Of a DNA stretch of 64,000 nucleotides, positions 7,629 to 61,341 are shown in pieces; position 1 is the stretch's first letter, and each line of letters begins with the position of its first letter. The translations under genes and the position numbers were made by a program. Under the pieces are notes generated by a model that saw nothing but the letters and a program-made list of their open reading frames with translations, searched no databases and had not been told where the DNA came from. This stretch comes from Sinorhizobium fredii NGR234 (GTDB lineage Bacteria; Pseudomonadota; Alphaproteobacteria; Rhizobiales; Rhizobiaceae): positions 620,001-684,000 of the forward strand of contig NC_012586.1 of NCBI RefSeq assembly GCF_000018545.1. Reading direction: 5' to 3'.

Positions 7629-7643
7629 GGGTCGTTCCTTCAT

Positions 7644-13999: not shown

Positions 14000-14012
14000 G
14001 TGTCGTCCCTCC

Positions 14013-15056: not shown

Positions 15057-15080
15057 TGAGGCTCCCTGGTGCATTTTGCA

Positions 15081-15116: not shown

Positions 15117-15165
15117 AAAAACAAACGGATAGAGCGGCAGCGCGAACGCATGTGAGCGCTCCGCT

Positions 15166-33833: not shown

Positions 33834-34154
33834 GCATGACCTTTCTGTTTCTGGCATCGGCATAGCACGCCCAGCACCGCAATCACGATAGTGGGAGAGT
33901 CGGGAGATTAGTGGTCGGATTCGCCTCGACCGGAAGCAGATTGTTCTGTATCGCACAAAGGCTCTGGCAGAGAGTTGCAGCCGGCGCCTTTCCGAGTGCA
34001 GGCATTGGCGTATCGGTTCCGTTACGGTCGGCACAAGATGCGGCACAGTTGGTAAACCTTAGCGCTAACGCGTGGCGGATGTCGGTGGGTCGGGAGGAAC
34101 TGCTGTCTTATGCGGGCTACCTTGAACCTTGAAGACACAGGCCGGAACCGCATC
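33834..34154. other. Intergenic region upstream of the GNAT
   Basis: 321 bp between divergent genes. It has the perfect palindrome TTAGCGCTAA at 34059-34068 and an open frame ending LLSYAGYLEP just before the GNAT, which may be the tail of a lost gene but was not recognised. Promoters for both sides must lie here. Confidence 0.3.
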
Positions 34155-35011: not shown

Positions 35012-35190
35012 ATGCGTGGACTCGCTTGTCGAACTCGACGGTGCGATCTGTCTCATCCACTCGCCCTCCTATCGCGGCCATCGGCGGGCGGGTGGTGAAA
35101 CGGCCAAAGGCGCGATTGTCACCGCGACCGGATATAAGCTGCTCGACGAGCTCGCGGGTCTGTGGAGTGTCAATGCGGATACGGGCAGCA
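35012..35190 (+). pseudogene. 5' remnant of a class III aminotransferase
   Basis: About 60 codons match the start of the 5400-6776 aminotransferase: SLVELDGAICLIH, SPSYRGH, KGAIVTATGYKLLDELAGLW and SVNAD against SLIELDRAHLIHP, ASYRGH, KGATVTDASGRQLIDGFAGLW and CVNAG. No intact start or PLP domain remains. The order GNAT then aminotransferase is the same as in the intact locus. Confidence 0.85.
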
Positions 35191-35929: not shown

Positions 35930-36034
35930 ATGACCACTTTCCGCCCGAAAAACATCACCTTCGACTGCCACGGCAGGCTGATCAACTTTCAGATAGCGGA
36001 GGCGGCCCGCAATCTTTACGGCAATCGAATGAGG
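35930..36034 (+). pseudogene. 5' remnant of a HAD hydrolase gene
   Basis: The first 35 codons follow the 43917 HAD gene (MTTFRPKNITFDCHGRLINF, then AEAARNLYGNRM). Thr of the HGTL nucleophile loop has become Arg. Similarity stops near 36034, just before the convergent Lrp gene. Confidence 0.88.
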
Positions 36035-36055
36035 GAATCGAGGTCTGCCACGAGG

Positions 36056-36532
36056 TTACTGCTGGAACAGGTTTGCCAGCGGCAAATGCGCTTTGACCAG
36101 GGGCGATTTCAGCACGACGAAGCTGAAGTACTTGTCGATGCCGATTTCCAAACCGAGGAGCCGCTCCATCAGCATCTGATACTCTTCGATTCCTGCGGTG
36201 ACGAATTTTACGAGATAATCGTAGCCTCCCGAAACCAGATGGCACTCGATGACCTGATCGACCTTCTCGATCGCAGCAAGAAATCTCGCGAAGTCGACTT
36301 GACGGTGGTTCTTCAGCGTGATTTCGGTGAACACCGTCAACGTCTGCCCCAGTTTTCCGATATTGATCTGCGCAGAATAGCCCTCGATATAGCCCTCCGC
36401 CTGCAGCTTTTTCACTCGCAGCAAACAGGGACTTGGCGAGAGATTGACCATTTCCGCAAGCTCGACATTCGTCATTCGGCCATTCTTCTGCAATGCGTTG
36501 AGTATCCTGACGTCGATCCGATCAAGTTTCAT
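36056..36532 (-). CDS. Lrp/AsnC-family regulator (paralog 1)
   Basis: Feast/famine regulator of 158 residues. The N-terminal helix-turn-helix is LDRIDVRILNALQKNGRM, NVELAEMVNLSPSPCLLRVK; the C-terminal RAM effector domain has LTVFTEITLKNHR and GGYDYLVKFVTAGIEEYQ. It shares most of its sequence with 47488 and 62790, so these three form a recent local family and probably recognise related sites and amino-acid-like effectors. Its ATG overlaps the end of the glycerate-kinase pseudogene. The unit upstream encodes a tartrate dehydrogenase. Confidence 0.92.
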   Translation of the reverse strand: MKLDRIDVRILNALQKNGRMTNVELAEMVNLSPSPCLLRVKKLQAEGYIEGYSAQINIGKLGQTLTVFTEITLKNHRQVDFARFLAAIEKVDQVIECHLVSGGYDYLVKFVTAGIEEYQMLMERLLGLEIGIDKYFSFVVLKSPLVKAHLPLANLFQQ

Positions 36533-36952: not shown

Positions 36953-38026
36953 CTAGACGTTGGATGAATGAATCGCGTCGCAGACGGCCTCGGTAACCTC
37001 CCGGGTCGTGGCGGTACCGCCTACGTCGGGGGTAAGGATTCTGGCGCCAGTCACCCGCTCGACAGCGCGCATGAGGCGGGCCGAAGCGTCCTGCTCGCCG
37101 AGGTGGTCGAGCATCTGGGCCGCCGTCCAGAACGTGGCGACGGGGTTGGCGATGCCCTTACCGGTAATGTCGAAGGCGGACCCGTGGATCGGCTCGAACA
37201 TCGACGGAAAGCGGCGCTCCGGATCGATGTTCGCCGTCGGTGCAACCCCCAGGCTACCGGCAAGCGCGCCAGCGAGATCGGAGAGTATGTCGGCGTGCAG
37301 GTTGGTTGCCACGATGGTGTCGAGGCTCTGCGGCTTGAGCGTCATCCGGACTGTCATCGCATCGACCAGCATCTTGTCCCAGGTCACGTCCGGGAATTCC
37401 TCCGCCACTTCGGCGGCGATCTCGTCCCACATGACCATGCCATGCCGTTGGGCATTCGATTTCGTGACGACGGTGAGCAATTTGCGCGGTCGGGATTGGG
37501 CCAACTTGAAGGCGTAGCGCATAATGCGGGTGACGCCGACGCGGGTGAAGATGGCGACCTCAGTGCCGACCTCTTCAGGCAGGCCGCGGTGGGCGCGACC
37601 GCCATGGCCAGAATATTCGCCTTCGGAGTTCTCACGCACGATCACCCAGTCGAGGTCGCCGGGGCCGCAATTGCGCAGCGGGGAGGTTATGCCAGGCAGG
37701 ATCTTGGTTGGCCGGACATTGGCATACTGGTCGAAACCCTGGCAGATCGGCAATCTGAGCCCCCAAAGGGTGATATGGTCCGGAACATCCGGTGCTCCGA
37801 CCGCGCCGAAATAGATAGCGTCGAATTTCTTGAGCTGCTCCAGCCCATCCGACGGCATCATCACGCCATGTTTTCTGTAATAGTCAGATCCCCAGTCGAA
37901 ATTTTCGACGGTGAATTTTACGTCGCCGAGTCGCTTCTCGAGGGTCGCAAGAACCGTCCGGCCGGCCGCGATCACCTCAGGTCCGATGCCGTCGGCGGGT
38001 ATGGTTGCGATGGAGTATTCACGCAT
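36953..38026 (-). CDS. ttuC: Tartrate dehydrogenase/decarboxylase
   Basis: NAD-dependent beta-decarboxylating dehydrogenase of 357 residues, the size of tartrate dehydrogenases. IATIPADGIGPEVIAAG opens the fold, ENSEGEYSGHGGRAHRG is the tartrate-branch substrate loop, KSNAQRHGMVMWDE holds the active-site Lys, and FEPIHGSAFDITGKGIAN binds NAD. Products from tartrate would be D-glycerate and CO2, consistent with the adjacent glycerate-kinase pseudogene. ATG 38026 is preferred over a TTG one codon earlier, with GGAG 10 bases upstream. D-malate is an alternative substrate. Confidence 0.88.
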   Translation of the reverse strand: MREYSIATIPADGIGPEVIAAGRTVLATLEKRLGDVKFTVENFDWGSDYYRKHGVMMPSDGLEQLKKFDAIYFGAVGAPDVPDHITLWGLRLPICQGFDQYANVRPTKILPGITSPLRNCGPGDLDWVIVRENSEGEYSGHGGRAHRGLPEEVGTEVAIFTRVGVTRIMRYAFKLAQSRPRKLLTVVTKSNAQRHGMVMWDEIAAEVAEEFPDVTWDKMLVDAMTVRMTLKPQSLDTIVATNLHADILSDLAGALAGSLGVAPTANIDPERRFPSMFEPIHGSAFDITGKGIANPVATFWTAAQMLDHLGEQDASARLMRAVERVTGARILTPDVGGTATTREVTEAVCDAIHSSNV

Positions 38027-38253
38027 CAAACTTCTCCGTAGCGTTATTCACTCAAGCTGGCAGCGGCCGTTACTGCGCCTTCGGCGCCATGCGATTGGCG
38101 TCGACGCTGCGACTCCGCCGAAAAGCAGGCTCTGGCGGAGCCGGAGAGGAAGCATCCGAGATGGTGCTTGCATCGCAACCGGCGGCACCGGCATCCTGAG
38201 CGCCGCCTGGCAGGATATCCTTCGGAGCTGTCAAATTCCGCAGGGAGCGCTGG

Positions 38254-39024
38254 TCAGCGTTGATCGAGCAATTTGATCTGGAGATCTTCCCAGTGCTCCT
38301 GGAACGCCTCTCGCGCCGTATCGTAGTGGCGGCTTCTCAAGCTGTTGATGAGCCGCTCGTGTTCTTCCGCCATTTCTTCTGCAGTGGCGTAGAAATCCTG
38401 CCGCTGTGCGAGGAGAAGCTCGATCTCGCCCTCGAGGTCTGAATAGGTTCGCTTCAGCCGAGGGCTGCCGCTAGCGGCAATGATCGCGCGGTGGAAATCA
38501 CGGTCCGCAGCAACCAGCAGGGATCTGTCGGAGGATAGAGTCGACCTGTGCATAACCTCGACCGCCTCCAGCGCCTGAGATGGGATGACGCCGGTCAGCA
38601 CGATCAGACGAATGGCCTCGCCTTCGATGGCGCCGCGCACGCGTGTGATATCGACAATATCGTCGGGCCCGAATTCAGGCACCACAAAGCCTCTGTTCGG
38701 TATCTGACGCAGCAGGCCCTGCGTGACGAGCACCTGGGCTGCTGTACGGAATGTGTGCCGCGAGGTCGAATGCTCTTCGCACATCTTCACGTCGCGAAGG
38801 AACTCGCCCGGTCGGAAATCTCCCGACAAGATGCGCCGTCGCAAGGTGTGGGTCAGGGTTTCCACGGCGCTAGTGGGCAGGGGCTCGACATTCATCTCGA
38901 GGTCTTCGGCTTGATTCTTGGCGTGCAGCGGCGGCATGGCTTTGCTCGTTGATTTTGTTTGCATACCTACGCCACATGCGGTGGCGTAGGGCAAGGGAGA
39001 TGATATTGTGCCGCTCAACTTCAT
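38254..39024 (-). CDS. GntR-family (FCD-type) regulator
   Basis: Regulator with a winged helix-turn-helix (VETLTHTLRRRILSGDFRPG ... TSRHTFRTAAQVLVTQGLL) and an all-helical FCD effector domain (AIEGEAIRLIVLTG, DRDFHRAIIAASGS). The start is uncertain. ATG 39024, with AGGA upstream, gives 256 residues and an unusually long leader; ATGs at 38964 and 38895 give 236 and 213 residues, nearer the family norm. A perfect inverted repeat at 38966-38990 falls between the first two choices. It follows the phospho-lyase gene and precedes the tartrate dehydrogenase on the same strand. Confidence 0.87.
   Translation of the reverse strand: MKLSGTISSPLPYATACGVGMQTKSTSKAMPPLHAKNQAEDLEMNVEPLPTSAVETLTHTLRRRILSGDFRPGEFLRDVKMCEEHSTSRHTFRTAAQVLVTQGLLRQIPNRGFVVPEFGPDDIVDITRVRGAIEGEAIRLIVLTGVIPSQALEAVEVMHRSTLSSDRSLLVAADRDFHRAIIAASGSPRLKRTYSDLEGEIELLLAQRQDFYATAEEMAEEHERLINSLRSRHYDTAREAFQEHWEDLQIKLLDQR
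38966..38990. promoter_or_regulatory. Perfect 10-bp inverted repeat at the GntR gene start
   Basis: CCTACGCCAC (38966-38975) and GTGGCGTAGG (38981-38990) flank a 5-bp centre. It ends 2 bases upstream of the ATG at 38964. Its length and symmetry suit an autoregulatory operator; an mRNA hairpin after the phospho-lyase gene is the alternative. Confidence 0.55.
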
Positions 39025-39035
39025 GGTGGCGGTTC

Positions 39036-40406
39036 CTAGATCTGCACGGACCGAAGCGCCTCGTCGACGCCCTCGAGCAGCCGCGCGGCGTTGGCCGATG
39101 TGAAGATGAGCGGAGGCCTGATCTTCAGGATGTGCGCGTCCACTCCAGTGGCGGAAATGAGGATGCGCCGGTCGCGCAAGGCATTGACGGCTGCAAGCGC
39201 TCGGTCCATGTCCGGCGTTTTCCGGTCTCTATCCTTGACGAGTTCGACGGCGAAATAGAGGCCGGCCCCGCGAACGTCGCCGACGAATTCATATTTCGTC
39301 TGTAGGTCCCGGAGGCCGTCGAGGATCTCGCTGCCGACCTTGGCGGCGTTGTCCATCAGGCCCTCTTCGAGGATCGTGTCGAGCACGGCCCTTGCCGCGG
39401 CGATCGCGACGGAGTTGCCGCCAAACGTGTTGAAGTAGCGCATGCTGGATCCGAACTCGGCGACGAGTTCGGGCCGCAGGACGACGCCGGCAACGGGATA
39501 GCCGTTGCCCATCGGCTTGCCCATGGTGACAATGTCCGGATCGACCTTGTGCCGGGAGTGACCCCAAAGATGGGTGCCGGTCCGCCCGAATCCGGATTGC
39601 ACCTCGTCGGCGATGAACAGGCCGCCCGCCTTTCGCACCACTTCCGCCACCGGTGCCAATACGTCCGTCGGATCGACGTAGAGACCATCGGAGGAGAAGA
39701 CGGAGTCGGCGATGAAGGCCGCTAGGCCGCCGCCATGCCGCTCCATGTCGGCGATCTGCCGCGCGACATCCTCGGCCATCCGCCGGCCGATTTCCTCGAC
39801 TGGCAGGCGGTAGGAATCCGGCGCGGCGACCGTGCGAAGATAGGGGTCCAGGGCCGACTTCTTGCCGAGCGAGGGCGAGATTGCCGCCACCGCCCCGCTG
39901 TTGCCGTGATAGGCTTCGGCCGTGACGATGACGCCGGTCTTGCGTGTGTGGTAACGCGCGATGCGCAAGGCGAGATCGTTGGCTTCCGAGCCCGTGCACG
40001 TAAACATCGCGCATCCGGTCCGGCCGAGTTCGCCACCGAACGTATTGATCAGGGCTTCGGCATAGTCCAGCAGGGGCTCCTGCATGTAACGCGTGTGGGT
40101 ACACAGTACCTCGAGCTGCTTCTGGATCGCCTCGACGACACGCGGATGAGAGTGACCCAGCGATACCACGTTGTTGTAGGCGTCGAGATATTCGTTGCCG
40201 TGCCTGTCATAGAGGAAGACGCCCTTGGCGCGGGAGACCTCAACCGGCGACTTGTAGAAGAGCCGATAAGCCGGCCCGAGCAGCCTTTGCCGCCTGGTGA
40301 TATGGGCCAGATCTTCACTTGTGAGATGAGACGTGTCCTGAGGATTGAAGCCATTTGGCATGTCGCCACGGAAGCCCTTGGGCAGGGTAGTCGCTTGCTT
40401 GGACAT
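39036..40406 (-). CDS. Class III PLP enzyme, AGXT2L-type amine-phosphate phospho-lyase
   Basis: PLP enzyme of 456 residues. It keeps the class III core (CTGSEANDLALRIARYHT, IADEVQSGFGRTG, K297 in TMGKPMGNGYP), but shows FNTFGGNSVAIAAA where transaminases have the HxYTYSxHP loop. GKPMGNG plus FNTFGGN is characteristic of ethanolamine-phosphate and 5-phosphohydroxylysine phospho-lyases, which remove ammonia and phosphate from a phosphorylated amino alcohol to leave an aldehyde. An APH-fold kinase gene ends 8 bases upstream of this ATG, as expected for that route. AGGA precedes the ATG. The phosphorylated substrate is unknown. Confidence 0.85.
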   Translation of the reverse strand: MSKQATTLPKGFRGDMPNGFNPQDTSHLTSEDLAHITRRQRLLGPAYRLFYKSPVEVSRAKGVFLYDRHGNEYLDAYNNVVSLGHSHPRVVEAIQKQLEVLCTHTRYMQEPLLDYAEALINTFGGELGRTGCAMFTCTGSEANDLALRIARYHTRKTGVIVTAEAYHGNSGAVAAISPSLGKKSALDPYLRTVAAPDSYRLPVEEIGRRMAEDVARQIADMERHGGGLAAFIADSVFSSDGLYVDPTDVLAPVAEVVRKAGGLFIADEVQSGFGRTGTHLWGHSRHKVDPDIVTMGKPMGNGYPVAGVVLRPELVAEFGSSMRYFNTFGGNSVAIAAARAVLDTILEEGLMDNAAKVGSEILDGLRDLQTKYEFVGDVRGAGLYFAVELVKDRDRKTPDMDRALAAVNALRDRRILISATGVDAHILKIRPPLIFTSANAARLLEGVDEALRSVQI

Positions 40407-40414
40407 TGCGGTTC

Positions 40415-41479
40415 CTATCGTGTCAGAAGGTCGGAAATCTGTGCGGTCGAAATCGAGTGGAACCACTCGAGGTGGGCCCAGCCGGCTTCGGTATTTCGCA
40501 GGATATAGCGGCTATTCTCGGGGAAGATTTCGGCGCGCCAGCACGTCAGCAGCGCACGGACTGCAAGACGGCCCATTGACAGGAAGGGGATGAGCCGGAG
40601 TTCCTCGTCCGTCAGTTCGGCGTGGCGAAGATAGCCACGCAGTACGTCGCGCGGTTCGTCGAACAGGTCACGCCGGTTCCCATGGTCGAACGTTTTTGGC
40701 ATCTGGTTCATCAACGCCGTGGAGACGTCGACGGCGATGGCGGTACGGACCGCATCGCCGAAATCGATGACGCCGGTCAGGAACTGCGGGCTGGCGTGAT
40801 CGACGACCAGGTTCGACGTATTGAAGTCGTTGTGGAGCACCTGCCGCCGGCACCGGTCGAGGCTCGGCTTGACCTCGGAAAAGCGCTCGAGCGCGCGGAC
40901 GGTCCAGGCCCGCTTGCCGCCGTCGGGGATAAAGCTCAACAGTTCGGTGAGATCGAGCAGATGGGTGACGTCCCATGCTACCGCCCGGCCGTCTGCGGGA
41001 TGCGAAAAATCGGCCAGGGAATGACGCAGCTTCGCCAGGATCTCGCCGATTCTTTCGCGCTGCGGGGCTGTGGCAGATGTCCGATCGAGCGGAGTGCCGG
41101 GAAGGAAGGTAATGAGCCGCGCCACGCGCCGCTCGCCGGCACTGGTCGTGACGATGGGCAATTCCGCGCCGTCGAGGTCGCGAAGTGCACGGGGGATGGG
41201 TAGATCAGGGGCCCGCTGCTCGAGATGACGCATCAGCGCGACCTGGAAATCGAGCTCCTCCATCCGCTCGGAAGGGTGAGCGATCTTCAGCACGAACTTC
41301 CCGCGGGCCGCGCAATCGAGGAGAAACGTGTCGTCTTTCTCGGTCTCAAAACGCGTGGCCGAGCCACGCGCGCCATATAGCCGTGCGGCGATTTCTTCGG
41401 CTTCCGCAGCGCCCACGCGATGGCACGCCTCGGAAAGCTCAGGGACGCGGGCTGGCCCGCACTGATGCTTGTGACCCAT
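40415..41479 (-). CDS. APH-family kinase, hydroxylysine-kinase-like
   Basis: Small-molecule kinase of 354 residues with the aminoglycoside/choline-kinase fold. The catalytic loop reads VLHNDFNTSNLVVD (HxDxxxxN, about residue 235), the metal Asp lies in TGVIDFGDAV, and the ATP-anchoring Lys in GKFVLKIAHPSE. FIDFGD-type loops with this spacing are typical of hydroxylysine kinase. Together with the phospho-lyase 8 bases downstream it would phosphorylate the hydroxyl of an amino alcohol and then split the product (inference from the pair). ATG 41479 is chosen by length; the ribosome site is weak. A homologous pair occurs at 44834-47417. Confidence 0.85.
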   Translation of the reverse strand: MGHKHQCGPARVPELSEACHRVGAAEAEEIAARLYGARGSATRFETEKDDTFLLDCAARGKFVLKIAHPSERMEELDFQVALMRHLEQRAPDLPIPRALRDLDGAELPIVTTSAGERRVARLITFLPGTPLDRTSATAPQRERIGEILAKLRHSLADFSHPADGRAVAWDVTHLLDLTELLSFIPDGGKRAWTVRALERFSEVKPSLDRCRRQVLHNDFNTSNLVVDHASPQFLTGVIDFGDAVRTAIAVDVSTALMNQMPKTFDHGNRRDLFDEPRDVLRGYLRHAELTDEELRLIPFLSMGRLAVRALLTCWRAEIFPENSRYILRNTEAGWAHLEWFHSISTAQISDLLTR

Positions 41480-41892
41480 CTTCAACTCATTCAGATCCTG
41501 CCTCGTGAATGGGCAGCTCGATGGCCTCACTATCGCACATCCCAACTTTTGTACAACAATTTATTTGTAGGGGGAGATTTCTTACCGTTGGAATGGATCT
41601 CTTTCTGATGAATGATCATTGACGATAGCGCGGGGGGCATGCCAGTGAAATTCCTACAGAACTTTGGAATTTTGGGGCGCTTTAGCTGTATACCGCGTCA
41701 GTTTGCTGTTGTTTGGATGCGGCGCACGCAAGCTGGGGCAAGTGCCAGGGCGGCCGGCCATCGGAAAAAATTGTTGGACAATCAGTTGCTATCGCCGCAA
41801 AGTTATGCCAGTGTGCTCGCACTGGCCAAAATGCAGTTACGATGACCTTGGATAGGCACACTGTGCCGTCAGAATTGGAAGGAATACACGCC
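41480..41892. promoter_or_regulatory. Divergent promoter region, kinase unit / HAD gene
   Basis: 413 bp without a gene and clearly AT-richer than its neighbours, especially 41540-41700. GCCAGTG (41807-41813) and CACTGGC (41820-41826) form a 7-bp inverted repeat 67 bases before the HAD ATG, a candidate regulator site. AAGGAA at 41879 serves the HAD gene. Confidence 0.4.
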
Positions 41893-42582
41893 ATGACTCA
41901 ATTTCGACCGAAGTACGTCACCTTCGACTGCTACGGAACGCTCACCAATTTCGATATGGCCGGCGCTGCGCGACGCGTCTACGGCGAGCGTCTCTCCCCA
42001 GAAGCGATGACCGGCTTTGTCGAGGCCTTTAGAGGCTATCGCCTTGACGAGGTGCTAGGGCCATGGAAGCCTTTCCTCGAAGTGGTGCACAATTCCATCG
42101 AGCGCAGCTGCAAGCGCATCGGTATCGCGTTCAAACCCGAAGACGCGCAACGCATCTATGACGAAGTGCCAACCTGGGGTCCGCACCCGGACGTCCCGGC
42201 TGGCCTGTCCAGGGTGGCCAAGGAAATTCCGCTGGTCATCCTGTCGAACTCCATGAACAACCTGATCATGTCGAATGTGGAAAAGCTAGGCGCGCCCATT
42301 CATATGGTTATCACGGCAGAAGAGGTCGGGGCGTACAAACCTCTGATGAAGGGCTTCGAATACATGCTCGACAAGCTCGGCTGCGGGCCAGAAGACATTA
42401 CTCATGTGTCCTCATCCTTCCGCTACGACCTGATGACCGCCTATGACCTCGGTATCAAGAGCAAGGTCTGGGTCAACCGCGGGCATGAGCCGGCCAATCC
42501 CTATTACGAGTACACCGAGATCAAGGATATCGGCGGGTTAGCCGCTGCCGTTGGCCTGGAGACAGCCCTCAAGCGCGCCTGA
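41893..42582 (+). CDS. HAD-superfamily hydrolase, haloacid-dehalogenase type II-like (paralog 2)
   Basis: Hydrolase of 229 residues, the most diverged of the three intact copies. The nucleophile motif FDCYGTL, LSNSMNN, YKPLMKGFEYML and SSSFRYDLMTAYDLG are kept, with the same Phe substitutions at the positions that are Tyr and Asn in true haloacid dehalogenases. It has a 7-residue C-terminal extension. It is divergent from the kinase/phospho-lyase unit, whereas the 43917 copy lies upstream of a homologous pair on the same strand. That repeated association argues for a shared pathway. Confidence 0.88.
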   Translation: MTQFRPKYVTFDCYGTLTNFDMAGAARRVYGERLSPEAMTGFVEAFRGYRLDEVLGPWKPFLEVVHNSIERSCKRIGIAFKPEDAQRIYDEVPTWGPHPDVPAGLSRVAKEIPLVILSNSMNNLIMSNVEKLGAPIHMVITAEEVGAYKPLMKGFEYMLDKLGCGPEDITHVSSSFRYDLMTAYDLGIKSKVWVNRGHEPANPYYEYTEIKDIGGLAAAVGLETALKRA

Positions 42583-42618
42583 AAAACTAGCGTTCAGGCG
42601 CTGTTGCTACGAAGAGAC

Positions 42619-42639
42619 AGGGGCGGTTCATTCGCCCCT
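42619..42639 (+). terminator. Rho-independent terminator after the HAD gene
   Basis: AGGGGCG (42619-42625) and CGCCCCT (42633-42639) make a perfect 7-bp stem with a 7-base loop, 36 bases after the stop, followed by TCGCTTTATT. Confidence 0.65.
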
Positions 42640-43175
42640 TCGCTTTATTGTTCGACAGGGGAGCAAAGCATGGCCTTTCCGGCGACGCCTTCCGCACGAG
42701 TGACCTGCTGGCGTTAGAGGATGGTGTGATCCGAACGTGACGCAACGGCACGTCGGGGCTCGGGAGGCGTTGTTACGCGGCCGCTATCGATGTCCGCTTT
42801 CGAGTAAGCGGGGCTGTTCCTCAACGACCGATTTGGTAAAGGTTTTTCGATGCGGGCTCCTGCATGACGGTGGCGGCTGGGGCTGTGTCGGCCTGCGTTG
42901 AAAAACCTCCCAAGGAGGAGGCCGCGGGGGCTGGGTGGAGCGCCTATGGGGAAAGCGTGCGGCGGCGGTTGTTCAAGGTGGCTATCGGTGGGAGCGTCGG
43001 GTGCAAAAGGAAAGCCCCGAAGGCTTGCAATGGGTGGATCGGGATCGGGATCACTGGTGTTTCGTAGGCTGGCATCGGCGGTTTTGCAGCGTGCTGGGTT
43101 GCTTGGGGCAGACCGGCGCCCTCCCGGAACGCATCGCGATCCCGGCCGGCCTTGGCTGATGTGACATGCGTTTCG
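42640..43175. other. Non-coding debris left of the IS91 scar
   Basis: 536 bp with no supported gene. The right part (about 42920-43175) is probably the terminal non-coding end of the IS91-family element, since it directly follows the transposase stop on the minus strand. The left part is unrecognised. Confidence 0.4.
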
Positions 43176-43597
43176 TCATGCGGCGTCCTTTCGGGGTGGC
43201 GCGCGGGATCTGGGTTGCTGGCGACGGCGGAATATCTCAACGATGCGCATCGGACCGCCGCAGTGCGGGCATGGCTCTCTCAGGGTGAGCGGGGTAGCCT
43301 CGGCGTTTGGCGCTTTACCCTGCGCTTCATCGCCTCGCGGCCGCAGGTGGTGGCGAAAAAGAACCGCAGCGCCACGATGCGGGCGTTGAAGGTCGTCGGC
43401 GTGACGCCGGCGTTGGTCATGTGCAGTTGGTAGGCGCGCAGGTCATCGGCTGTCGCCGTATCCGGTGATCGCTTCAGAAACCCGGCGAAATCCTTGATGG
43501 CTCGAATATGCGCCTGCTGAGCTTTGTCGCCCATCCCACGGATGCGCATGTCTTCGATCATCCGCTCGCGCAGCGGGGTCGTCGTCTCCTCCGTCAT
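43176..43597 (-). mobile_element. IS91-family element, deletion derivative
   Basis: On the minus strand, an intact start of the IS91-associated tyrosine-recombinase-like protein begins at ATG 43597 with AGGAGGT 5 bases upstream (MTEETTTPLRERM, MTNAGVTPTTFNARIVALRF). After about 90 residues it runs, in another frame, straight into the transposase C-terminus: TPLTLREPCPHCGGPMRIVE then IFRRRQQ and a stop at 43176. The rest of the recombinase and nearly all the transposase have been deleted between about 43330 and 43350. Confidence 0.8.
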
Positions 43598-43759
43598 GGC
43601 AACCTCCTGTCTGAAGATTGAGAACACCCCAATCGTCAGCCAGGATCACAGACCCGCAAATGCATAGCGTTCAAATCATTGCTGCACCCTCACCACGGGC
43701 GCCAGTGCCGCGCGAGCGGCTTCGTCCTTGGTTGCACAGCGGTCGCGGCTTTGGACGCC

Positions 43760-43916
43760 GGTCGGATCACCGTTCACGCGCAATCGAAAGGGCTAAGCCG
43801 ACGCCGGGTGCAGAATTTTCTGCTGACAAACCGAGGAATCCGACCGATGCATCGGCTGGGACCGGCCTACGATTGCTCATAACCGAAACCGATCCGGTCA
43901 AAAAAGGACGAAGCGC
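43760..43916 (+). repeat. HAD upstream region, source copy of 35770-35929
   Basis: Non-coding DNA before the HAD ATG, matched by 35770-35929 and more loosely by 7880-7949. CGGCCTACGATTGCTCATAA is the most conserved block, lying about 35 bases before AAGGACGAAGCGCATG. A promoter function is likely. Confidence 0.6.
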
Positions 43917-44585
43917 ATGACCACTTTCCGCCCGAAATATATCACCTTCGACTGCCACGGCACGCTGATCAACTTCCAGATGGCGGAGGCGGCACGCGAT
44001 CTTTACGGCGACCGGATGAGCGAGCAGAAAATGCTGCAGTTCATCGCGGACTTCTCTGCGTACCGGCTCGATGAAGTCATGGCCGACTGGAAGCCCTATG
44101 CGGAGGTGGTCTATAACGCACTGGCGAGGACCTGCAAGCGCAACGGCGTCGACTTCAAGGACGAAGACGCCCAGATGGTATACGAACGCGTTCCCACCTG
44201 GGGGCCGCATCCGGACGTTCCGGCTGGTCTTGCCAAGGTCGCCAAGGAAATCCCGCTGGTCATCCTGTCAAATGCCATGAACTCGCAGATCATGTCCAAC
44301 GTCGAGAAGCTCGGCGCGCCTTTCCACGCTGTTTACACCGCCGAAGAGGCTCAGGCCTACAAGCCGCATTTCCGGGCCTTCGAATATATGCTCGACATGC
44401 TTGGTTGCGGTCCGGAGGACATCCTGCATTGCTCCTCCTCGTTCCGCTACGATCTGATGTCCGCACATGATCTCGGGATCAAGAACAAGGTTTGGGTCAA
44501 TCGCGGTCACGAGCCGGCCAATCCCTATTACGGCTATACCGAGATCGCCGGCATCTCGGAATTGCCAGGCGTCGTCGGGCTCTGA
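43917..44585 (+). CDS. HAD-superfamily hydrolase, haloacid-dehalogenase type II-like (paralog 3)
   Basis: Hydrolase of 222 residues, very close to the 7950 copy over its whole length. The nucleophile motif is FDCHGTL (Tyr to His beside the Asp). LSNAMNS, AYKPHFRAFEYML and SSSFRYDLMSAHDLG are unchanged, including Phe where dehalogenases have Tyr and Asn. AAGGA lies 8 bases before the ATG. Downstream lie a decayed PuuB-like oxidase start, a kinase and a phospho-lyase, all on the same strand, followed by an Lrp gene. Confidence 0.9.
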   Translation: MTTFRPKYITFDCHGTLINFQMAEAARDLYGDRMSEQKMLQFIADFSAYRLDEVMADWKPYAEVVYNALARTCKRNGVDFKDEDAQMVYERVPTWGPHPDVPAGLAKVAKEIPLVILSNAMNSQIMSNVEKLGAPFHAVYTAEEAQAYKPHFRAFEYMLDMLGCGPEDILHCSSSFRYDLMSAHDLGIKNKVWVNRGHEPANPYYGYTEIAGISELPGVVGL

Positions 44586-44593
44586 AAGTCTCT

Positions 44594-44775
44594 CTCCGGC
44601 AGTTCGATTACTCGGTTCGCAGGAATGTCGAGGACCGATGGAAAGCCATCGCGGTGCCGCCGTCTTCGGCGGTGGCATCACGATCCCGCGCGGGTAAGGT
44701 AATGCCCAAAGCGAACCGAGACGATCGTGCTGGAGGCGGGGACGGTAGTTCCGGCGCCCTCAGCAGCAAACGCCC
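44594..44775 (+). pseudogene. 5' remnant of a PuuB-like FAD oxidase
   Basis: DNA after the HAD stop retraces the start of the 8631 oxidase gene: GGCAGTTCGATTAC for its start, GCCGTCTTCGGCGGTGGCAT for the GxGxxG codons, and ATCGTGCTGGAGGCGGGGAC for the end of the second strand. Frame is lost repeatedly. The HAD-then-oxidase order of the intact locus is preserved. Confidence 0.75.
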
Positions 44776-44833
44776 GACCGTAATCGAGGCTGGGCGCAGC
44801 GAAACAGATGCCATCTCGACGGCCGCTTTTGGG

Positions 44834-45976
44834 ATGAGCATGCCGCTGGCACCAAACAGTGCGAGGGTCTCTATCTTGGGTGCTTGTAACGATGCGGTTC
44901 CAGACGACGGCGAGGGTCATCTCGACGGCAACCAGTCGGTCTGCGCGCCTTTCACCGAAGCATATTTTCGAGCCGCTGCCGCTATTCTGGCGACAAAGCG
45001 AAGCGCTGCGGAAGCACGAGTGTCGGGTGGTGAGCTGCTACTACGCCATTACGGCTTGACGGGAACGATCATGGTCCTGTCCTCGGAAGTCGAGTGTACC
45101 TCGGACGTCACCCTGTTGAACGGCGATCGGTTGATCCTCAAAACGTCAGCGCGGCCGGAAGGACGAGACAGTTTCCGCTTCCAGGTTGCGGCCCTTGCAG
45201 GGCTGGAAGGCGCTTCCGGTTTCGCAGTACCTCAGATCGTGCGTACCAGCGGCGGCATGCTGATGTTCGAAGAGGACGAGATTTGCGGCTACCTGCAGAC
45301 CCGACTTTCGGGGGTGCCGCTGCACCAGGCGAACGCAACTCCGGACGTCCTTTACCAGGTCGGCCAGGCGCTTGGTAGGCTCAGTTTGGCTCTCGAGCCT
45401 CTGAAGTTGCCCGACATTCACCGCCCAGTCCTTTGGCATGTCGGATGCTGGCCGAGGCTAATGGAACTGGAGAAGCACCTGCCTTCAGGGTCGGTTGCCG
45501 ATTCCGTGCATCTTGCCATCAGCAACTATGTCGAGTTTACCAAGCCGCAGCTGCGCGAGGTAGCATGGCAGGTTACGCACAATGACCCTAATCCGTTCAA
45601 CACATTCCTGATCGATGATGGTGTCGCGTTCATCGATTTCGGCGATGGTTGCTGGGGCCCACGGATCCAGGATCTCGCGATTGCGGCAAGCCATGTGGTG
45701 GCGGAGCCGCCTTTGGCTCTGGGCGGCGCAGAAAATCTCATCGCTGGTTATGCTTCGGTGCGCCCGCTTTCCGCTCTTGAGGCAAAACTGCTCGTCGGGC
45801 TGATAAAGGCGCGGCAGAGCGCCCTCATCCTGATCAACTACTGGCGAGCCGAGCTGTTTCCGGCCGAGGCAGCTTATATCAAGAAGAACGTGGCCCGAGC
45901 CGAACGCGGGCTCGCTATCCTATCGGCCCTGGACGAAGGGGAGGCGGAGATGGCTGTGCGTCGCTCGGTGACTTAG
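44834..45976 (+). CDS. APH-family kinase (hydroxylysine-kinase-like), paralog
   Basis: Kinase of about 380 residues. VTHNDPNPFNTFLIDD is the catalytic loop and AFIDFGDGCWGPRI the metal-binding loop; GDRLILKTSARPEG carries the ATP Lys. The C-terminal part AELFPAEAAYIKKNVARAE mirrors the 40415 kinase (AEIFPENSRYILRNTEAGW). The start is uncertain: the frame is open from the HAD gene, and ATG 44834 is the first that leaves the oxidase remnant; no good ribosome site is seen. The phospho-lyase gene follows after about 100 bases, so this is the second kinase/phospho-lyase pair. Confidence 0.8.
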   Translation: MSMPLAPNSARVSILGACNDAVPDDGEGHLDGNQSVCAPFTEAYFRAAAAILATKRSAAEARVSGGELLLRHYGLTGTIMVLSSEVECTSDVTLLNGDRLILKTSARPEGRDSFRFQVAALAGLEGASGFAVPQIVRTSGGMLMFEEDEICGYLQTRLSGVPLHQANATPDVLYQVGQALGRLSLALEPLKLPDIHRPVLWHVGCWPRLMELEKHLPSGSVADSVHLAISNYVEFTKPQLREVAWQVTHNDPNPFNTFLIDDGVAFIDFGDGCWGPRIQDLAIAASHVVAEPPLALGGAENLIAGYASVRPLSALEAKLLVGLIKARQSALILINYWRAELFPAEAAYIKKNVARAERGLAILSALDEGEAEMAVRRSVT

Positions 45977-46082
45977 CCCGGCGTCGCTGGAGGCAATCGG
46001 AGTGTTGCATCCCTCACCTCGGTAATCACTACGGCAACTCGCGACCTTCTCGCGGATGGAAACTCTAAGCAGGATCAAAGCT

Positions 46083-47417
46083 ATGTCCACCGATCTCATG
46101 CCCAACCGCTTTACCCCCGGGGAAGCTACAATTCCCCCGCGGGAATCTGAGTTGATCGCCCGGCGCGACAGCGTGCTGGGAGCCTCCTACAGGCTTCAAT
46201 ACCGCCGACCGGTCCTTTTCGTTCGCGGCGAGGGCATATGGCTCTACGATCCCGACGGACGTCGCTATCTGGATTTCTATAACAATGTGCCTTCTCTCGG
46301 GCATTGCAATCCAGAGATCAACGCTGCCGTGGCGGATCAAGCCAGCCGAATAAGCGCAAATACCCGCTATCTCGAACCGAGGCTTGTCGACTATGCCGAA
46401 CGGCTCGTGGCCACCTTCCCTGGGGAGCTGAACCGCGTTGTCTTTACCTGTACGGGAAGCGAATCGAACGATCTGGCGCTTCGGATCGCCCGTTTGACCA
46501 GCGGCAATGAGGGCGTAATCGTCTCTTCCCACGCCTATCACGGCACCAGCGCGGCCACGGCGATGGTGTCGCCCAATCTGGGCGACGCCGTCAAGCTCAG
46601 TCCTGCCGTCCGCATGGTGTCTCTACCAGGCCCGGCAGGCATTTCGGAAGCGCAGGCAGCGGACTTCTTTGAAGCGCAAGTGCGAGCCGCCATTACAGAC
46701 CTGAACCGGCGTGGCACTGGCATCGCGGCACTCCTCATCGACAGTATTTTTTCGAGCGACGGCGTCTGGGTCGACCCGCCTGGCTTCATCGTCGGCGGTG
46801 TTAGGGCAGTGCGGGAGGCGGGCGGCCTCGTCATCGCCGATGAAGTTCAGCCGGGATTCGGACGGACGGGCACGCACATGTGGGGTTTTGAGCGGCACGA
46901 AGTTGTTCCGGACCTCGTTACCCTCGGCAAGCCCATGGGCAATGGATTTCCAATCGGCGCGGTCGTCGGCCGTAAGGCGCCGATGGATCGCTTTGGCGCC
47001 ACTGCCCGGTACTCGAACACCTTCGGCGGCAACACCGTCGGCATCGCGGCGGCTGACGCCGTCCTGACAATCTTGCAAAGGGATCAGATCCCCGAGCATG
47101 CGCACGCCATGAGTGAGCGCCTGAGGCTGGGGTTGGAGCATCTTGCCAAGCTGCACCCCGGCATTCGCGGTATCCGAAATGCCGGGCTGTTCTTCGGCAT
47201 CGACATCGGGTTGGACGGAGCGGAAGAGGCCAGCCGGCGCGCCATGGCCTTGGATATCGTAAACCTGATGCGTGACGATGGCGTTTTGATCAGTACGACG
47301 GGCGCCAACGAGGATACGCTGAAGGTGCGCCCGCCGCTGATTTGCCAGGCGGCGCATGTGGACCGGTTCCTCGAAGCCATGGAATGCGCGCTCAAGAAGG
47401 CCGTCGCGCAGATGTAA
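46083..47417 (+). CDS. Class III PLP enzyme, AGXT2L-type phospho-lyase, paralog
   Basis: PLP enzyme of 444 residues. CTGSESNDLALRIARL, IADEVQPGFGRTGTHMWGFE, the Lys in TLGKPMGNGFP and SNTFGGNTVGIAAA reproduce the phospho-lyase pattern of the 39036 protein. AGGA precedes ATG 46083. Its kinase partner is upstream and an Lrp regulator 70 bases downstream. The differences from the first pair (roughly half the residues by eye) suggest related but distinct substrates rather than a recent copy. Confidence 0.85.
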   Translation: MSTDLMPNRFTPGEATIPPRESELIARRDSVLGASYRLQYRRPVLFVRGEGIWLYDPDGRRYLDFYNNVPSLGHCNPEINAAVADQASRISANTRYLEPRLVDYAERLVATFPGELNRVVFTCTGSESNDLALRIARLTSGNEGVIVSSHAYHGTSAATAMVSPNLGDAVKLSPAVRMVSLPGPAGISEAQAADFFEAQVRAAITDLNRRGTGIAALLIDSIFSSDGVWVDPPGFIVGGVRAVREAGGLVIADEVQPGFGRTGTHMWGFERHEVVPDLVTLGKPMGNGFPIGAVVGRKAPMDRFGATARYSNTFGGNTVGIAAADAVLTILQRDQIPEHAHAMSERLRLGLEHLAKLHPGIRGIRNAGLFFGIDIGLDGAEEASRRAMALDIVNLMRDDGVLISTTGANEDTLKVRPPLICQAAHVDRFLEAMECALKKAVAQM

Positions 47418-47487
47418 CATGGACTGCCTCGGCGGCCGAATTTACCGGATCGCGGGCTCGAGCGATCCTCATAAGCGAAAGTAAGTC

Positions 47488-47964
47488 ATGAAACTCGATC
47501 GGATCGACGTCAAGATACTGCACGTGCTGCAGCAGAACGGCCGCATGACAAATGTGGAGCTTTCGGAGGTTGTGAACCTATCGCCGAGCCCGTGCCTCAT
47601 GCGCGTGAAGAAGCTGCAGTCGGAGGGCTTTATTGAGGGCTATTCGGCGCAGATCAATGTCGCCAAGTTGGGGCAGACATTAACGGTGTTCACGGAGGTC
47701 ACGCTCAAGAACCACCGGCAGACCGACTTTGCACGCTTCCTCGCCGCCGTTGAGAAGATCGATCAACTGATCGAGTGCCATGTGGTCTCCGGCGGCTATG
47801 ACTACCTGTTGAAATTCGTGACCACCGGGATCGGCGAATATCAAGAGATCATGGAGCGGCTGGTCGAGTTGGACGTTGGCATCGACAAATATTTCAGCTT
47901 CGTCGTGCTGAAATCGCCGATCGTGAAGGGGCACCTACCGCTGACGGACCTGTTTCGGCCATAG
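47488..47964 (+). CDS. Lrp/AsnC-family regulator (paralog 2)
   Basis: Regulator of 158 residues almost identical in design to the 36056 protein: LDRIDVKILHVLQQNGRM, NLSPSPCLMRVKKLQSEGF, LTVFTEVTLKNHRQTDFARF and GGYDYLLKFVTTGIGEYQ. Position directly after the phospho-lyase gene and before a PuuB-like oxidase suggests it controls both. No ribosome site stronger than AAAG is seen before its ATG, but start and length equal those of its paralogs. Confidence 0.93.
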   Translation: MKLDRIDVKILHVLQQNGRMTNVELSEVVNLSPSPCLMRVKKLQSEGFIEGYSAQINVAKLGQTLTVFTEVTLKNHRQTDFARFLAAVEKIDQLIECHVVSGGYDYLLKFVTTGIGEYQEIMERLVELDVGIDKYFSFVVLKSPIVKGHLPLTDLFRP

Positions 47965-48039
47965 AATCTTATCAACACTTCGCCCTTTGCTCCGATGGGA
48001 CAAAGGGCGTTTCGATCTCGAGCGAGAAGGCGCACCCCC

Positions 48040-49314
48040 ATGAAATTCCTCCCCTACTGGCACGACAATGCCCCGGCCTTCGCAGGGGCGTCACAGGGTC
48101 CGGTCGATGGACACTATGACGTCGCAGTGATCGGCGGCGGCTTCACCGGTCTCGGCGCTGCCCGGCAGCTCGCCAAGGCAGGGGCCAAGGTCGTCGTGCT
48201 GGAGGCGGAAAAGGTCGGTTCGGGCGCCTCCGGCCGCAATGGCGGGCATTTGAACAACGGGCTCGCCCACAGCTATCTGGCCGCAAAGGCGGAGCTCGGC
48301 AAGGAACGGGCAATCGCCCTCTATAAGGCGCTCGACGATTCGATCGACACGATCGAGGCGCTGATCGCGGAGGAAGGCATCGACTGCAATTTCCGCCGTG
48401 CCGGAAAGCTGAAGCTCGCCTCCAAGCCCCAGCATTTCGACGCGATCGCGCGCAACTTCGAAGCCGTGCACACGGAGGTCGACCCCGACACGGCGTTGCT
48501 CAGCGCCGACGACCTGAAGCAGGAAATCGGCTCGCCCTTCCATGGCGCGATGCTCTCGAAAAAGAGCGCAATGATGCATATGGGCCGCTACGTCGTCGGG
48601 TTGGCCGAGGCAGCCAAGCGTCACGGCGCGACGATCTTCGAGAAGGCAGCCGTCACAGAACATCGGCAGGCGGGCAGCCGCCATCGTCTGAAAACGACCC
48701 GTGGCAGCGTCACCGCGGATGCGGTGCTTGTCGCCACCGGGGCCTATACGCCCTCGACCTTCGGCTATTTCCGCCGTCGGATCATCACGGTTGGCAGCTT
48801 CATCATCGCCACGCGGCCACTGACCGAAGCGGAGATCGCCACGACGATGCCGGGCAACCGCACCTGCGTCACGTCAATGAATATCGGCAACTACTTCCGG
48901 CTCTCGCCGGACAACCGGCTGATCTTCGGCGGCCGCGCTCGCTTCTCGGCAAGCTCCGACCAGCGTTCGGACGCGAAGATCGGCGCAATTCTCCAGGCAC
49001 GCCTCGCAGAGATCTTCCCGCAACTCGCCAATGCCGAGATCGACTATTGTTGGGGCGGCCTTGTCGACATAACCAAGGACCGCTTCCCGCGCGCCGGCTA
49101 TCATGACGGCGTATGGTACGCCATGGGCTATTCCGGCCATGGCGCCCAGCTTTCCACCCATCTCGGTATGATCATGGCGGATGCGATCCTTGACCGACCG
49201 GACCGCAACCCGCTGAAGGGCCTCGATTGGCCGGCGGTGCCGGGACATTTCGGCACGCCCTGGTTCCTGCCGCTGGTTGGCATGTATTATAAGATGCTGG
49301 ACAGGTTCCAGTAG
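48040..49314 (+). CDS. FAD-dependent amine oxidase, PuuB/DAO family, paralog
   Basis: Flavoenzyme of 424 residues, near-identical in layout to the 8631 protein: VAVIGGGFTGLGAARQLAKA, GSGASGRNGGHLNNGLAHSY, CNFRRAGKLKLASKPQHFDA and YAMGYSGHGAQLSTHLGM. GAGAAGG precedes the ATG by 9 bases. Here it follows an Lrp regulator rather than a HAD gene, but a HAD gene with a dead copy of this oxidase lies 3.5 kb upstream, so the intact copy may have replaced it functionally (inference). Confidence 0.92.
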   Translation: MKFLPYWHDNAPAFAGASQGPVDGHYDVAVIGGGFTGLGAARQLAKAGAKVVVLEAEKVGSGASGRNGGHLNNGLAHSYLAAKAELGKERAIALYKALDDSIDTIEALIAEEGIDCNFRRAGKLKLASKPQHFDAIARNFEAVHTEVDPDTALLSADDLKQEIGSPFHGAMLSKKSAMMHMGRYVVGLAEAAKRHGATIFEKAAVTEHRQAGSRHRLKTTRGSVTADAVLVATGAYTPSTFGYFRRRIITVGSFIIATRPLTEAEIATTMPGNRTCVTSMNIGNYFRLSPDNRLIFGGRARFSASSDQRSDAKIGAILQARLAEIFPQLANAEIDYCWGGLVDITKDRFPRAGYHDGVWYAMGYSGHGAQLSTHLGMIMADAILDRPDRNPLKGLDWPAVPGHFGTPWFLPLVGMYYKMLDRFQ

Positions 49315-50364: not shown

Positions 50365-50365
50365 G

Positions 50366-59867: not shown

Positions 59868-59954
59868 CACTTGATCGAACCATATTGGGCGAACGCCCCT
59901 GTTTTCCCAGAAACCTCAGAAGGCTTTGGCCGAACGCAACGAGAAGTCAGTCTT

Positions 59955-61265: not shown

Positions 61266-61341
61266 AGCTTAATCGTTTGAGGAATTCAGCGCTCCTGCCG
61301 GGGGCGAGAATCTCATGCATTGTTGCAGAGGAATACAGATC

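What the first reader, a model, noticed from the sequence alone, without database searches (positions are those of the whole stretch)
38254..49314. Twice-repeated HAD + APH kinase + phospho-lyase + Lrp module, a candidate undescribed amino-alcohol pathway
Seen: two kinase/phospho-lyase pairs (40415-41479 with 39036-40406, and 44834-45976 with 46083-47417), each next to a HAD-II-like hydrolase (41893, 43917) and a near-identical Lrp gene (36056, 47488). Known: hydroxylysine kinase and ethanolamine kinase products are cleaved by AGXT2L phospho-lyases to ammonia, phosphate and an aldehyde. Inference: a bacterial route that phosphorylates a hydroxylated amine, eliminates it and oxidises the aldehyde, with a HAD enzyme of unknown role. 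The repeated association of the same four families is hard to explain by chance.
Basis: partly seen in the sequence, partly recalled or inferred. Interest (0 to 1): 0.85.

Follow-up and report, generated by a model that had tools for sequence, protein, structure and literature searches.

The report
Amine-breakdown gene cluster in a rhizobium
Two kinase plus phospho-lyase enzyme pairs sit beside hydrolases distantly related to one that opens a small nitrogen ring, suggesting that these root-associated bacteria dismantle a hydroxylated, nitrogen-rich compound, possibly one made by plants, by a route that we did not find described.

Summary
The genes are real. 38254-49314 holds two class-III PLP enzymes of the phospho-lyase type (closest solved chains: phospholyases 5g4i and 6tor), each beside an APH kinase and a type II HAD hydrolase, with Lrp, GntR and flavin-oxidase genes. 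"Twice-repeated" needs correcting: the lyases are 45% identical, the kinases 28%, the Lrps 80% (not near-identical), and the lyases lie far apart in the tree, so the pairing with HAD seems assembled more than once. In 398 sampled Pseudomonadota genomes, 7 of 63 lyase places (5 outside the window's genome) lie within 5 kb of this HAD type, against 0.07 expected. Best reading: a pathway that dismantles amine-linked C4 units, with HAD acting as a C-N (azetidine-type) hydrolase and kinase plus phospho-lyase turning a hydroxylated amine product into an aldehyde. The substrate is inferred; nicotianamine or mugineic-type chelators are the boldest fit. A new variant of a known kind.

The parts
38254..39024 (-). 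GntR/FCD regulator of module A
   Evidence: PF07729 70 bits, PF00392 36 bits; a homologue of 45% or more in 23 of 27 HAD+kinase+lyase loci, 0 of 25 HAD loci without the pair
39036..40406 (-). PLP phospho-lyase A (AGXT2L type)
   Evidence: PF00202 265 bits; solved-structure hits 5g4i phospholyase 331 bits and 6tor ethanolamine-phosphate phospho-lyase 324 bits, next hit 179 bits; GKPMGNG motif
40415..41479 (-). APH-family kinase A
   Evidence: PF01636 100 bits; NF004799 kinase part 196 bits; homoserine kinase models far below cut-off
41893..42582 (+). HAD type II hydrolase 1, divergent from kinase A
   Evidence: TIGR01428 174 bits over cut-off 125 (scored on 41713-42582)
43283..43597 (-). integrase remnant between the two HADs
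   Evidence: PF13495 58 bits
43917..44585 (+). HAD type II hydrolase 2
   Evidence: TIGR01428 199 bits; AlphaFold model mean pLDDT 93
44834..45976 (+). APH-family kinase B
   Evidence: PF01636 70 bits; NF004799 121 bits
46056..47417 (+). PLP phospho-lyase B
   Evidence: PF00202 240 bits; 5g4i 351 bits, 6tor 254 bits, next hit 162 bits
47488..47964 (+). Lrp/AsnC regulator 2
   Evidence: PF01037 53 bits, PF13412 67 bits
47995..49314 (+). FAD-dependent amine oxidase (DAO)
   Evidence: PF01266 257 bits; 77% identical to the core-module DAO at 8631-9908
36056..36532 (-). Lrp/AsnC regulator 1
   Evidence: 79.7% identical to Lrp 2
35930..36043 (+). HAD stub (38 residues, 79% identical to HAD 2)
   Evidence: tblastn E 1.4e-16
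35019..35186 (+). stub of the core-module class-III transaminase, directly after a GNAT gene
   Evidence: tblastn 50% over 60 residues, E 2.6e-8
34110..34997 (+). GNAT acetyltransferase, 47% identical to the core-module GNAT
36953..38029 (-). tartrate dehydrogenase family (TTC)
   Evidence: TIGR02089 604 bits, cut-off 470
31864..34046 (-). PALP dehydratase plus ornithine-cyclodeaminase-type pair; homologues lie near the modules in other genomes
24739..26343 (-). aldehyde dehydrogenase; its 90-91% relatives lie beside the dehydratase pair in L010 and L011
   Evidence: PF00171 515 bits
54480..59780 (+). dipeptide-type ABC importer (ATPase, SBP_bac_5, two permeases)
59871..62676 (+). two further FAD-dependent oxidoreductases (DAO family)
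7950..8618 (+). core-module HAD type II (third full-length copy)
   Evidence: 84% identical to HAD 2
8631..9908 (+). core-module DAO
   Evidence: PF01266 250 bits
5400..7643 (-). core-module class-III transaminase (5400-6776) and GNAT (6792-7643)
12545..15218 (-). core-module succinate-semialdehyde-type dehydrogenase (12545-13999) and second TTC (14013-15218)
   Evidence: TIGR01780 671 bits (cut-off 646), TIGR02089 575 bits (cut-off 470)
3604..5214 (-). core-module solute-binding protein of a dipeptide-type importer

Best explanation
The region is a specialised branch of a catabolic cluster that breaks down an amine-linked compound built of C4 amino-acid units. Import is by a dipeptide-type ABC transporter and flavin oxidases cleave secondary amines (inferred from families). 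The HAD type II enzyme breaks a C-N (azetidine-type) bond at C2 through an ester on its Asp12, giving a 2-hydroxy-4-amino acid (inferred). In the core cluster a transaminase, a succinate-semialdehyde-type dehydrogenase and a tartrate or 2-hydroxyacid dehydrogenase carry this to central metabolism (inferred). In the branch of this finding the product bears a hydroxyl next to the terminal amine: the APH kinase phosphorylates that hydroxyl and the PLP phospho-lyase removes phosphate and ammonia together, giving an aldehyde for the dehydrogenase. The family membership of kinase, lyase and HAD and their recurrent adjacency are shown; the order of steps and the substrate are inferred. Two kinase/lyase pairs, of separate origin, suggest two related hydroxylated substrates.
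For: Lyases: best solved matches are both phospholyases, by a wide margin; motif G[KR]P[MLIF]GNG in 94 of 95 homologues. HAD: over the type II cut-off; motif I is D-C-Y/H-G-T without the second Asp of HAD phosphatases; D12, N119, K149 and D179 invariant in 16 of 16 aligned; after 8hp5-8hp7 the next solved protein is L-azetidine-2-carboxylate hydrolase 3smv, and W95 matches a Trp of both in the printed alignments of the core HAD. Azetidine-2-carboxylate is hydrolysed to 2-hydroxy-4-aminobutyrate and then transaminated (PMC8016842, passages seen), which fits the core transaminase, succinate-semialdehyde dehydrogenase and TTC. Within 10 kb of 37 HADs in the sample of 398 genomes: DAO 33, GNAT 30, SBP 27, aldehyde dehydrogenase 27, GhrA 22, Lrp 17, transaminase 16, TTC 14. 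Association with kinase/lyase changed at least 6 times on the HAD tree and on the lyase tree, gains or losses; L136 and L152 add cases.
Against: HAD is only distantly related to the azetidine hydrolase (70 bits) and scores higher on 8hp5, filed as a 2-haloacid dehalogenase (89 bits); no activity is shown for any protein. 30 of 37 sampled HADs have no kinase plus lyase within 4 kb and 56 of 63 lyase places no HAD within 5 kb. The idea that kinase/lyase replaces the transaminase is only partial: 1 of 27 against 14 of 25 loci (rows related to one another), but 1 of 7 against 11 of 30 in the even sample, and P. viridiflava has a GABA transaminase in the same stretch. In the even sample only 2 of 7 HADs with kinase/lyase have an aldehyde dehydrogenase within 10 kb, 1 of 7 an importer protein within 10 kb and 1 of 7 a DAO within 4 kb. 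Some distant HADs (L120-L122) and one R. leguminosarum HAD (L089) have few or none of the usual enzymes near.
Confidence: 0.45

Rival explanations
1. Plain hydroxylated-amine catabolism as the reader proposed (5-hydroxylysine, ethanolamine, aminopropanol or GABOB): kinase and lyase do the work, and HAD is an unrelated neighbour in a catabolic island.
For: A stand-alone kinase/lyase pair with GntR and a lysine/arginine/ornithine-type importer on a Klebsiella plasmid; kinase and lyase families are those of hydroxylysine/ethanolamine metabolism (PMC9283133 passage); 56 of 63 lyase places have no HAD near.
Against: HAD is next to lyases of several separate lineages, 7 of 63 places against 0.07 expected; the own genome holds two further members of the lyase family elsewhere, so these two need not be the general ones.
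Confidence: 0.25
2. Hydroxyectoine or ectoine catabolism: the dehydratase/cyclodeaminase pair is EutB/EutC and the kinase/lyase removes hydroxy-diaminobutyrate.
For: PALP plus OCD pair at 31864-34046, with homologues linked to HAD in 10 of 52 loci and 0 of 59 controls. Four of the ten genomes asked (G000, G592, G303, G325) do have an EutE over cut-off somewhere.
Against: Both genes score below the EutB and EutC cut-offs. The genome's EutD and EutE lie elsewhere on the contig, at C2:2391108-2393280: 1.7 Mb away one way, about 0.7 Mb the other way if the 2.43 Mb contig is circular. No EutE over cut-off in G576, G670, G519, G318, G270 and G313, which carry lyases of these kinds.
Confidence: 0.05
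3. A true haloacid or other xenobiotic dehalogenation cluster, as the databases name the HAD.
For: TIGR01428 equivalog 'haloacid dehalogenase type II' over cut-off; best solved hit 8hp5 is filed as 2-haloacid dehalogenase.
Against: The recurrent neighbours are of families that handle amines, amino acids and semialdehydes; as far as I know a 2-haloacid route needs none of them.
Confidence: 0.08
4. Chance clustering in a catabolic island, with no shared pathway.
For: The window has decayed copies and an integrase remnant, and many catabolic operons lie side by side.
Confidence: 0.05

Closest known systems
AGXT2L phospho-lyases (ethanolamine-phosphate phospho-lyase 6tor; phospholyase 5g4i) with hydroxylysine/ethanolamine-type kinase
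   Same: Class-III PLP family, nearest solved relatives, GKPMGNG motif, adjacent APH kinase
   Different: Linked to a HAD type II hydrolase and a larger amine cluster; substrate unknown and no activity shown
L-azetidine-2-carboxylate degradation (Pseudomonas A2C hydrolase, AzhA of Aspergillus)
   Same: HAD-family hydrolase followed by GABA-type transamination, with a separate acetyltransferase that detoxifies (PMC8016842 passages); the core cluster has HAD, transaminase, succinate-semialdehyde-type dehydrogenase and GNAT
   Different: HAD only distantly similar (3smv 70 bits); GNAT not shown to be related to that acetyltransferase; flavin oxidases, dipeptide-type importer, TTC and kinase/lyase are extra
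(R)-1-hydroxy-2-aminoethylphosphonate ammonia-lyase PbfA
   Same: Class-III PLP enzyme doing a 1,2-elimination (PMC8154272 passages)
   Different: Both lyases far below the PbfA cut-off, 217 and 182 against 525 bits; two neighbours have weak phosphonate-family hits, far below cut-off (regulator 69 against 272, oxidase 175 against 633)
Hydroxyectoine utilisation EutA-E
   Same: PALP plus OCD gene pair and an Asp/Glu-racemase-type gene nearby
   Different: Below EutB/EutC cut-offs; real EutD/EutE elsewhere on the contig

Membership tests
AGXT2L-type phospho-lyase | Closest relatives are phospholyases rather than transaminases | tested here: met
   A: 331 and 324 bits against 179 for the next; B: 351 and 254 against 162
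AGXT2L-type phospho-lyase | GKPMGNG-type motif at the PLP lysine as in 5g4i and 6tor | tested here: met
   Alignments; 94 of 95 homologues
AGXT2L-type phospho-lyase | Releases phosphate and ammonia, no transamination | not testable with these tools
   Needs purified enzyme
Hydroxylysine/ethanolamine-type APH kinase | APH family, nearest model the kinase part of the fused kinase-lyase family | tested here: met
   PF01636 over cut-off; NF004799 196 and 121 bits, below the full-length cut-off of 1128
Homoserine kinase (ThrB-alt) | Score over the curated cut-off | tested here: not met
   TIGR00938 56 and 24 bits against 256
HAD type II hydrolase (2-haloacid dehalogenase family) | TIGR01428 over cut-off and nucleophile motif without the phosphatase second Asp | tested here: met
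   174 and 199 bits against 125; D-C-Y/H-G-T
L-azetidine-2-carboxylate hydrolase | Ring-opening activity | not testable with these tools
   Only distant similarity, 70 bits for HAD 2 and 67 for the core HAD; a Trp (W95) shared in the printed alignment
L-azetidine-2-carboxylate hydrolase | Fold comparison with 3smv | not tested
   Model made but fold search not available
PbfA ammonia-lyase | NF049939 over cut-off | tested here: not met
   217 and 182 against 525 bits
EutB/EutC of hydroxyectoine use | TIGR02991 and TIGR02992 over cut-off | tested here: not met
   222 against 413 and 232 against 472 bits
Tartrate dehydrogenase (TTC) | TIGR02089 over cut-off | tested here: met
   604 and 575 against 470 bits

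The most novel reading that the evidence does not exclude
This is the missing bacterial pathway for plant metal chelators of the nicotianamine and mugineic-acid family. The dipeptide-type importer (with a TonB receptor in some relatives) takes up the chelator, flavin oxidases cut its secondary amine, HAD opens the azetidine ring with inversion to a D-2-hydroxy-4-amino acid, transaminase, succinate-semialdehyde-type dehydrogenase and TTC take that to pyruvate, and the two kinase/phospho-lyase pairs deal with the hydroxylated forms: 2,3-dihydroxy-4-aminobutyrate from a 3-hydroxy ring and 2,4-diamino-3-hydroxybutyrate from the 2'-hydroxyl.
Probability: 0.22. Interest if true: 0.88.

Novelty: new variant of a known kind. 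Interest (0 to 1): 0.6.

Why it matters
One search returned 4114 proteins related to this HAD at E 1e-15 (the best 120 listed; a set that may reach beyond this subfamily); nearly all the names given among those listed are haloacid or haloalkanoic acid dehalogenase, yet the neighbours of this HAD type point to amine catabolism. A correct function would re-annotate a cluster found from rhizobia to Klebsiella plasmids. The apparently repeated recruitment of kinase plus phospho-lyase points to a general way of removing ammonia from a hydroxylated amine in one step. If the substrate is a plant chelator, it answers an open question: a 2021 paper states that the taxa and genes for phytosiderophore metabolism are unknown (PMC7786132, passage seen), and nicotianamine is needed in Medicago nodules (PMC10341464, passage seen).

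Tried and rejected
Rejected: one duplicated four-gene module (identities 28-80%, separate tree positions). Rejected: HAD as a phosphatase of the phosphorylated amine (no second Asp in motif I). Disfavoured: hydroxyectoine and phosphonate pathways. Weakened: kinase/lyase as a strict replacement of the transaminase (strong, weak, contradicted in P. viridiflava). Led nowhere: closest solved structures of the importer protein, GNAT, flavin oxidase and kinase were too distant or too general to name a substrate; a search by guessed S. meliloti gene numbers near the core cluster gave three papers, of which one passage was read, a passing mention of uncertain position; the listings of the other paper searches showed me no described bacterial hydroxylysine-type operon and no nicotianamine catabolic genes (titles and starts of abstracts only, and the library holds openly licensed papers only).

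Rows dropped before counts: tblastn hits covering under 40% or 45% of a query; L001-L008, L104 and L107 from the HAD set; L001-L008, L017, L023 and proteins under 195 residues or with a stop; L005, L008, L017, L023, L026 and proteins under 380 residues or with a stop. Limits: one search kept the best 80 of at least 554 relatives; searches scored at most 6, 13 and 4 lyase candidates per genome.

Full report
WHAT IS THERE. The window is 620001-684000 of contig C2 of a 6.9 Mb genome. Its nearest named relatives are rhizobia, mostly Sinorhizobium (97% lyase identity to S. saheli, S. kostiense, S. fredii and also Rhizobium croatiense; HAD 97.7% to S. americanum and S. sojae); the genus is inferred. 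Module A runs as kinase A 40415-41479, lyase A 39036-40406 and GntR/FCD 38254-39024 on the minus strand, with HAD 1 at 41893-42582 facing away from them. Module B is co-directional on the plus strand: HAD 2 43917-44585, kinase B 44834-45976, lyase B 46056-47417, Lrp 47488-47964, flavin oxidase 47995-49314. Between the HADs lies an integrase remnant (43283-43597); in R. croatiense and R. sophoriradicis (L010, L014, L091) a dehydratase/cyclodeaminase pair and an aldehyde dehydrogenase gene or fragment lie there instead.

NOT ONE DUPLICATION. Identities are 44.7% (lyases), 28.3% (kinases), 70.3% (HADs) and 79.7% (Lrps). In a tree of 95 lyases (quick method) the HAD-neighboured ones fall in separate places: the A clade (22 of 24 rows; support 91, not starred), the B clade (7 of 10; of the other three, L105 has its HAD in the adjoining slice L104, L107 is a short contig, L106 has a 34% HAD hit beside its kinase) and an Arthrobacter row; starred branches force at least 6 changes. 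In a tree of 59 HADs, kinase-linked ones also need at least 6 changes. Changes may be gains or losses. L136 and L152 add two cases with lyases at 51% and 48% and HADs at 51% and 55%. I read this as repeated recruitment.

THE LARGER CLUSTER. A third full-length HAD at 7950-8618 lies with a flavin oxidase, transaminase, GNAT, importer, succinate-semialdehyde-type dehydrogenase and TTC. Much of this set, in varying make-up, recurs in annotated records of R. leguminosarum, Klebsiella, B. cepacia, Sphingobium, Gemmobacter, Paracoccus and Sinorhizobium sp. K101 and by tblastn in S. meliloti pSymA, Variovorax and Arthrobacter. TTC or the 2-hydroxyacid dehydrogenase GhrA is often, not always, there. 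K101 holds nearly everything in one stretch with kinase and lyase B, but without the core transaminase. One R. leguminosarum HAD (L089) has a dipeptide-type transporter near but none of the usual enzymes, and L120-L122 have few of them. Beside the finding, the window keeps a GNAT gene followed by a 60-residue transaminase stub (35019-35186) and a 38-residue HAD stub (35930-36043), which looks like a decayed second copy of the core genes.

NUMBERS. Of the 80 lyase loci kept (the closest of at least 554), 21 hold a HAD of at least 40% identity and 59 do not. Adding HAD loci from other calls and the window gives 52 HAD loci against those 59 controls: flavin oxidase 36 v 1, importer protein 26 v 0, GNAT 31 v 0, aldehyde dehydrogenase 32 v 4, TTC 22 v 2, Lrp 22 v 1, dehydratase and cyclodeaminase 10 v 0 each (not an even sample, with some duplicates, and each family counted over an identity threshold of its own). 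In an even sample of 398 Pseudomonadota genomes, 28 have the HAD (37 places at E 1e-45) and 43 a lyase (63 places at E 1e-90, at most 4 candidates scored per genome); 13 have both, and 7 of 63 lyase places lie within 5 kb of a HAD. In the family sample of 121 genomes, lyase A relatives of 79% or more occur in 4 genomes (one the own), all beside HAD; 12 more distant places are not; lyase B relatives of 79% or more occur in 4 genomes (one the own), with HAD beside two, a contig break in one and no HAD at E 1e-60 in one. In an even class sample of 240 genomes (own included), 7 have the HAD and 25 a lyase; apart from the own genome only G071 and G182 have both, on other contigs or far apart.

HOW IT PROBABLY WORKS. 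Shown by sequence: both lyases belong with phospholyases; the HAD has the type II catalytic residues and no phosphatase second Asp. Taken from papers: azetidine-2-carboxylate hydrolase gives 2-hydroxy-4-aminobutyrate, then transamination, with an acetyltransferase as a second detoxification route (PMC8016842, passages); class-III enzymes that eliminate phosphate or water (PMC8154272, passages). Inferred: HAD acts on a C-N bond next to a carboxylate; flavin oxidases cut secondary amines; kinase and lyase act on a product with a hydroxyl next to a terminal amine; succinate-semialdehyde-type dehydrogenases take the aldehyde. Recalled, from no call: inversion by type II HADs, D-malate use by TTC, the structures of mugineic acids, bacterial amino-alcohol phospho-lyases of the 1970s, the opine-oxidase likeness below, the meaning of the second Asp in HAD phosphatases.

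TOWARDS A SUBSTRATE. Hints for a chelator or opine-like secondary amine: a TonB receptor homologue beside the core HAD in L095, L096 and L119 of 54 loci scanned, and recurrent ORFs that mark a three-part oxidoreductase (2Fe-2S, FAD/NAD, DAO) in 8 of the 54 (L025 and L153 being the same place), checked by Pfam in L096 and L025. Nicotianamine has an azetidine ring and two aminobutyrate units and is needed in Medicago nodules (PMC10341464, passages). P. fluorescens SBW25 is reported to lower mugineic and deoxymugineic acid levels, and the genes were called unknown in 2021 (PMC7786132, passages); I could not test whether SBW25 has this cluster, and the candidate genes that paper proposes (a transporter, a porin, an oxidoreductase) were not compared with it. 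One P. fluorescens genome reached by locus (P5A, L032) has a lyase but no HAD at E 1e-20. The listings of paper searches showed no catabolic genes for these compounds.

AGAINST. No activity is known to me for any of these proteins. The HAD is distant from the azetidine hydrolase. The kinase/lyase branch is absent beside 30 of 37 sampled HADs. Strict replacement of the transaminase is not upheld. A stand-alone kinase/lyase pair with a lysine/arginine/ornithine-type importer suggests that such a pair can serve another, basic amino acid. The genome has further lyase-family members at C2:2051870 and C2:1531426, the latter in a 1020-residue frame that also matches APH.

VERDICT. Observation partly confirmed, interpretation partly supported: a new variant of a known kind, with the HAD-centred cluster the more interesting object.

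Noticed in passing
window 0.1-16.7 kb: HAD-centred amine cluster (importer, transaminase, GNAT, HAD, DAO, succinate-semialdehyde-type dehydrogenase, TTC, aldehyde dehydrogenase); much of it recurs from rhizobia to Klebsiella, Burkholderia and Arthrobacter plasmids, where the HAD is filed as haloacid dehalogenase if annotated.
   Followed up: yes
L103 8910-11320: Stand-alone kinase plus phospho-lyase with GntR and a lysine/arginine/ornithine-type importer on a Klebsiella plasmid: a candidate hydroxylysine-type utilisation operon.
   Followed up: no
window 49666-52530: PdxA-type dehydrogenase with a four-carbon sugar acid kinase and a third gene, as in threonate/erythronate use by recall; homologues also beside HAD clusters in R. 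sophoriradicis (L091), Gemmobacter (L097) and G303 (L104).
   Followed up: partly
L096 19107-21900; L025 5032-7849: Three-part 2Fe-2S, FAD/NAD and DAO oxidoreductase, with like ORFs in 8 of 54 HAD loci scanned (two of them the same place), resembling opine oxidases by recall.
   Followed up: partly
L096 8601-10733, L119, L095: TonB-dependent receptor homologues beside the core HAD cluster.
   Followed up: partly
window 43917-44585; L091, L097, L100, L101: HAD motif I reads DCHGT instead of DCYGT in HAD 2 and these relatives, several of them near the second type of importer.
   Followed up: no
window 20896-21011: Fragment of the dehydratase gene (end of the protein, 67-82% identical) far from the full copy at 31864-32841.
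   Followed up: no
G000 C2:2391108-2393280: The genome's own ectoine hydrolase and deacetylase genes (EutD, EutE), over cut-off, elsewhere on the window's contig.
   Followed up: yes
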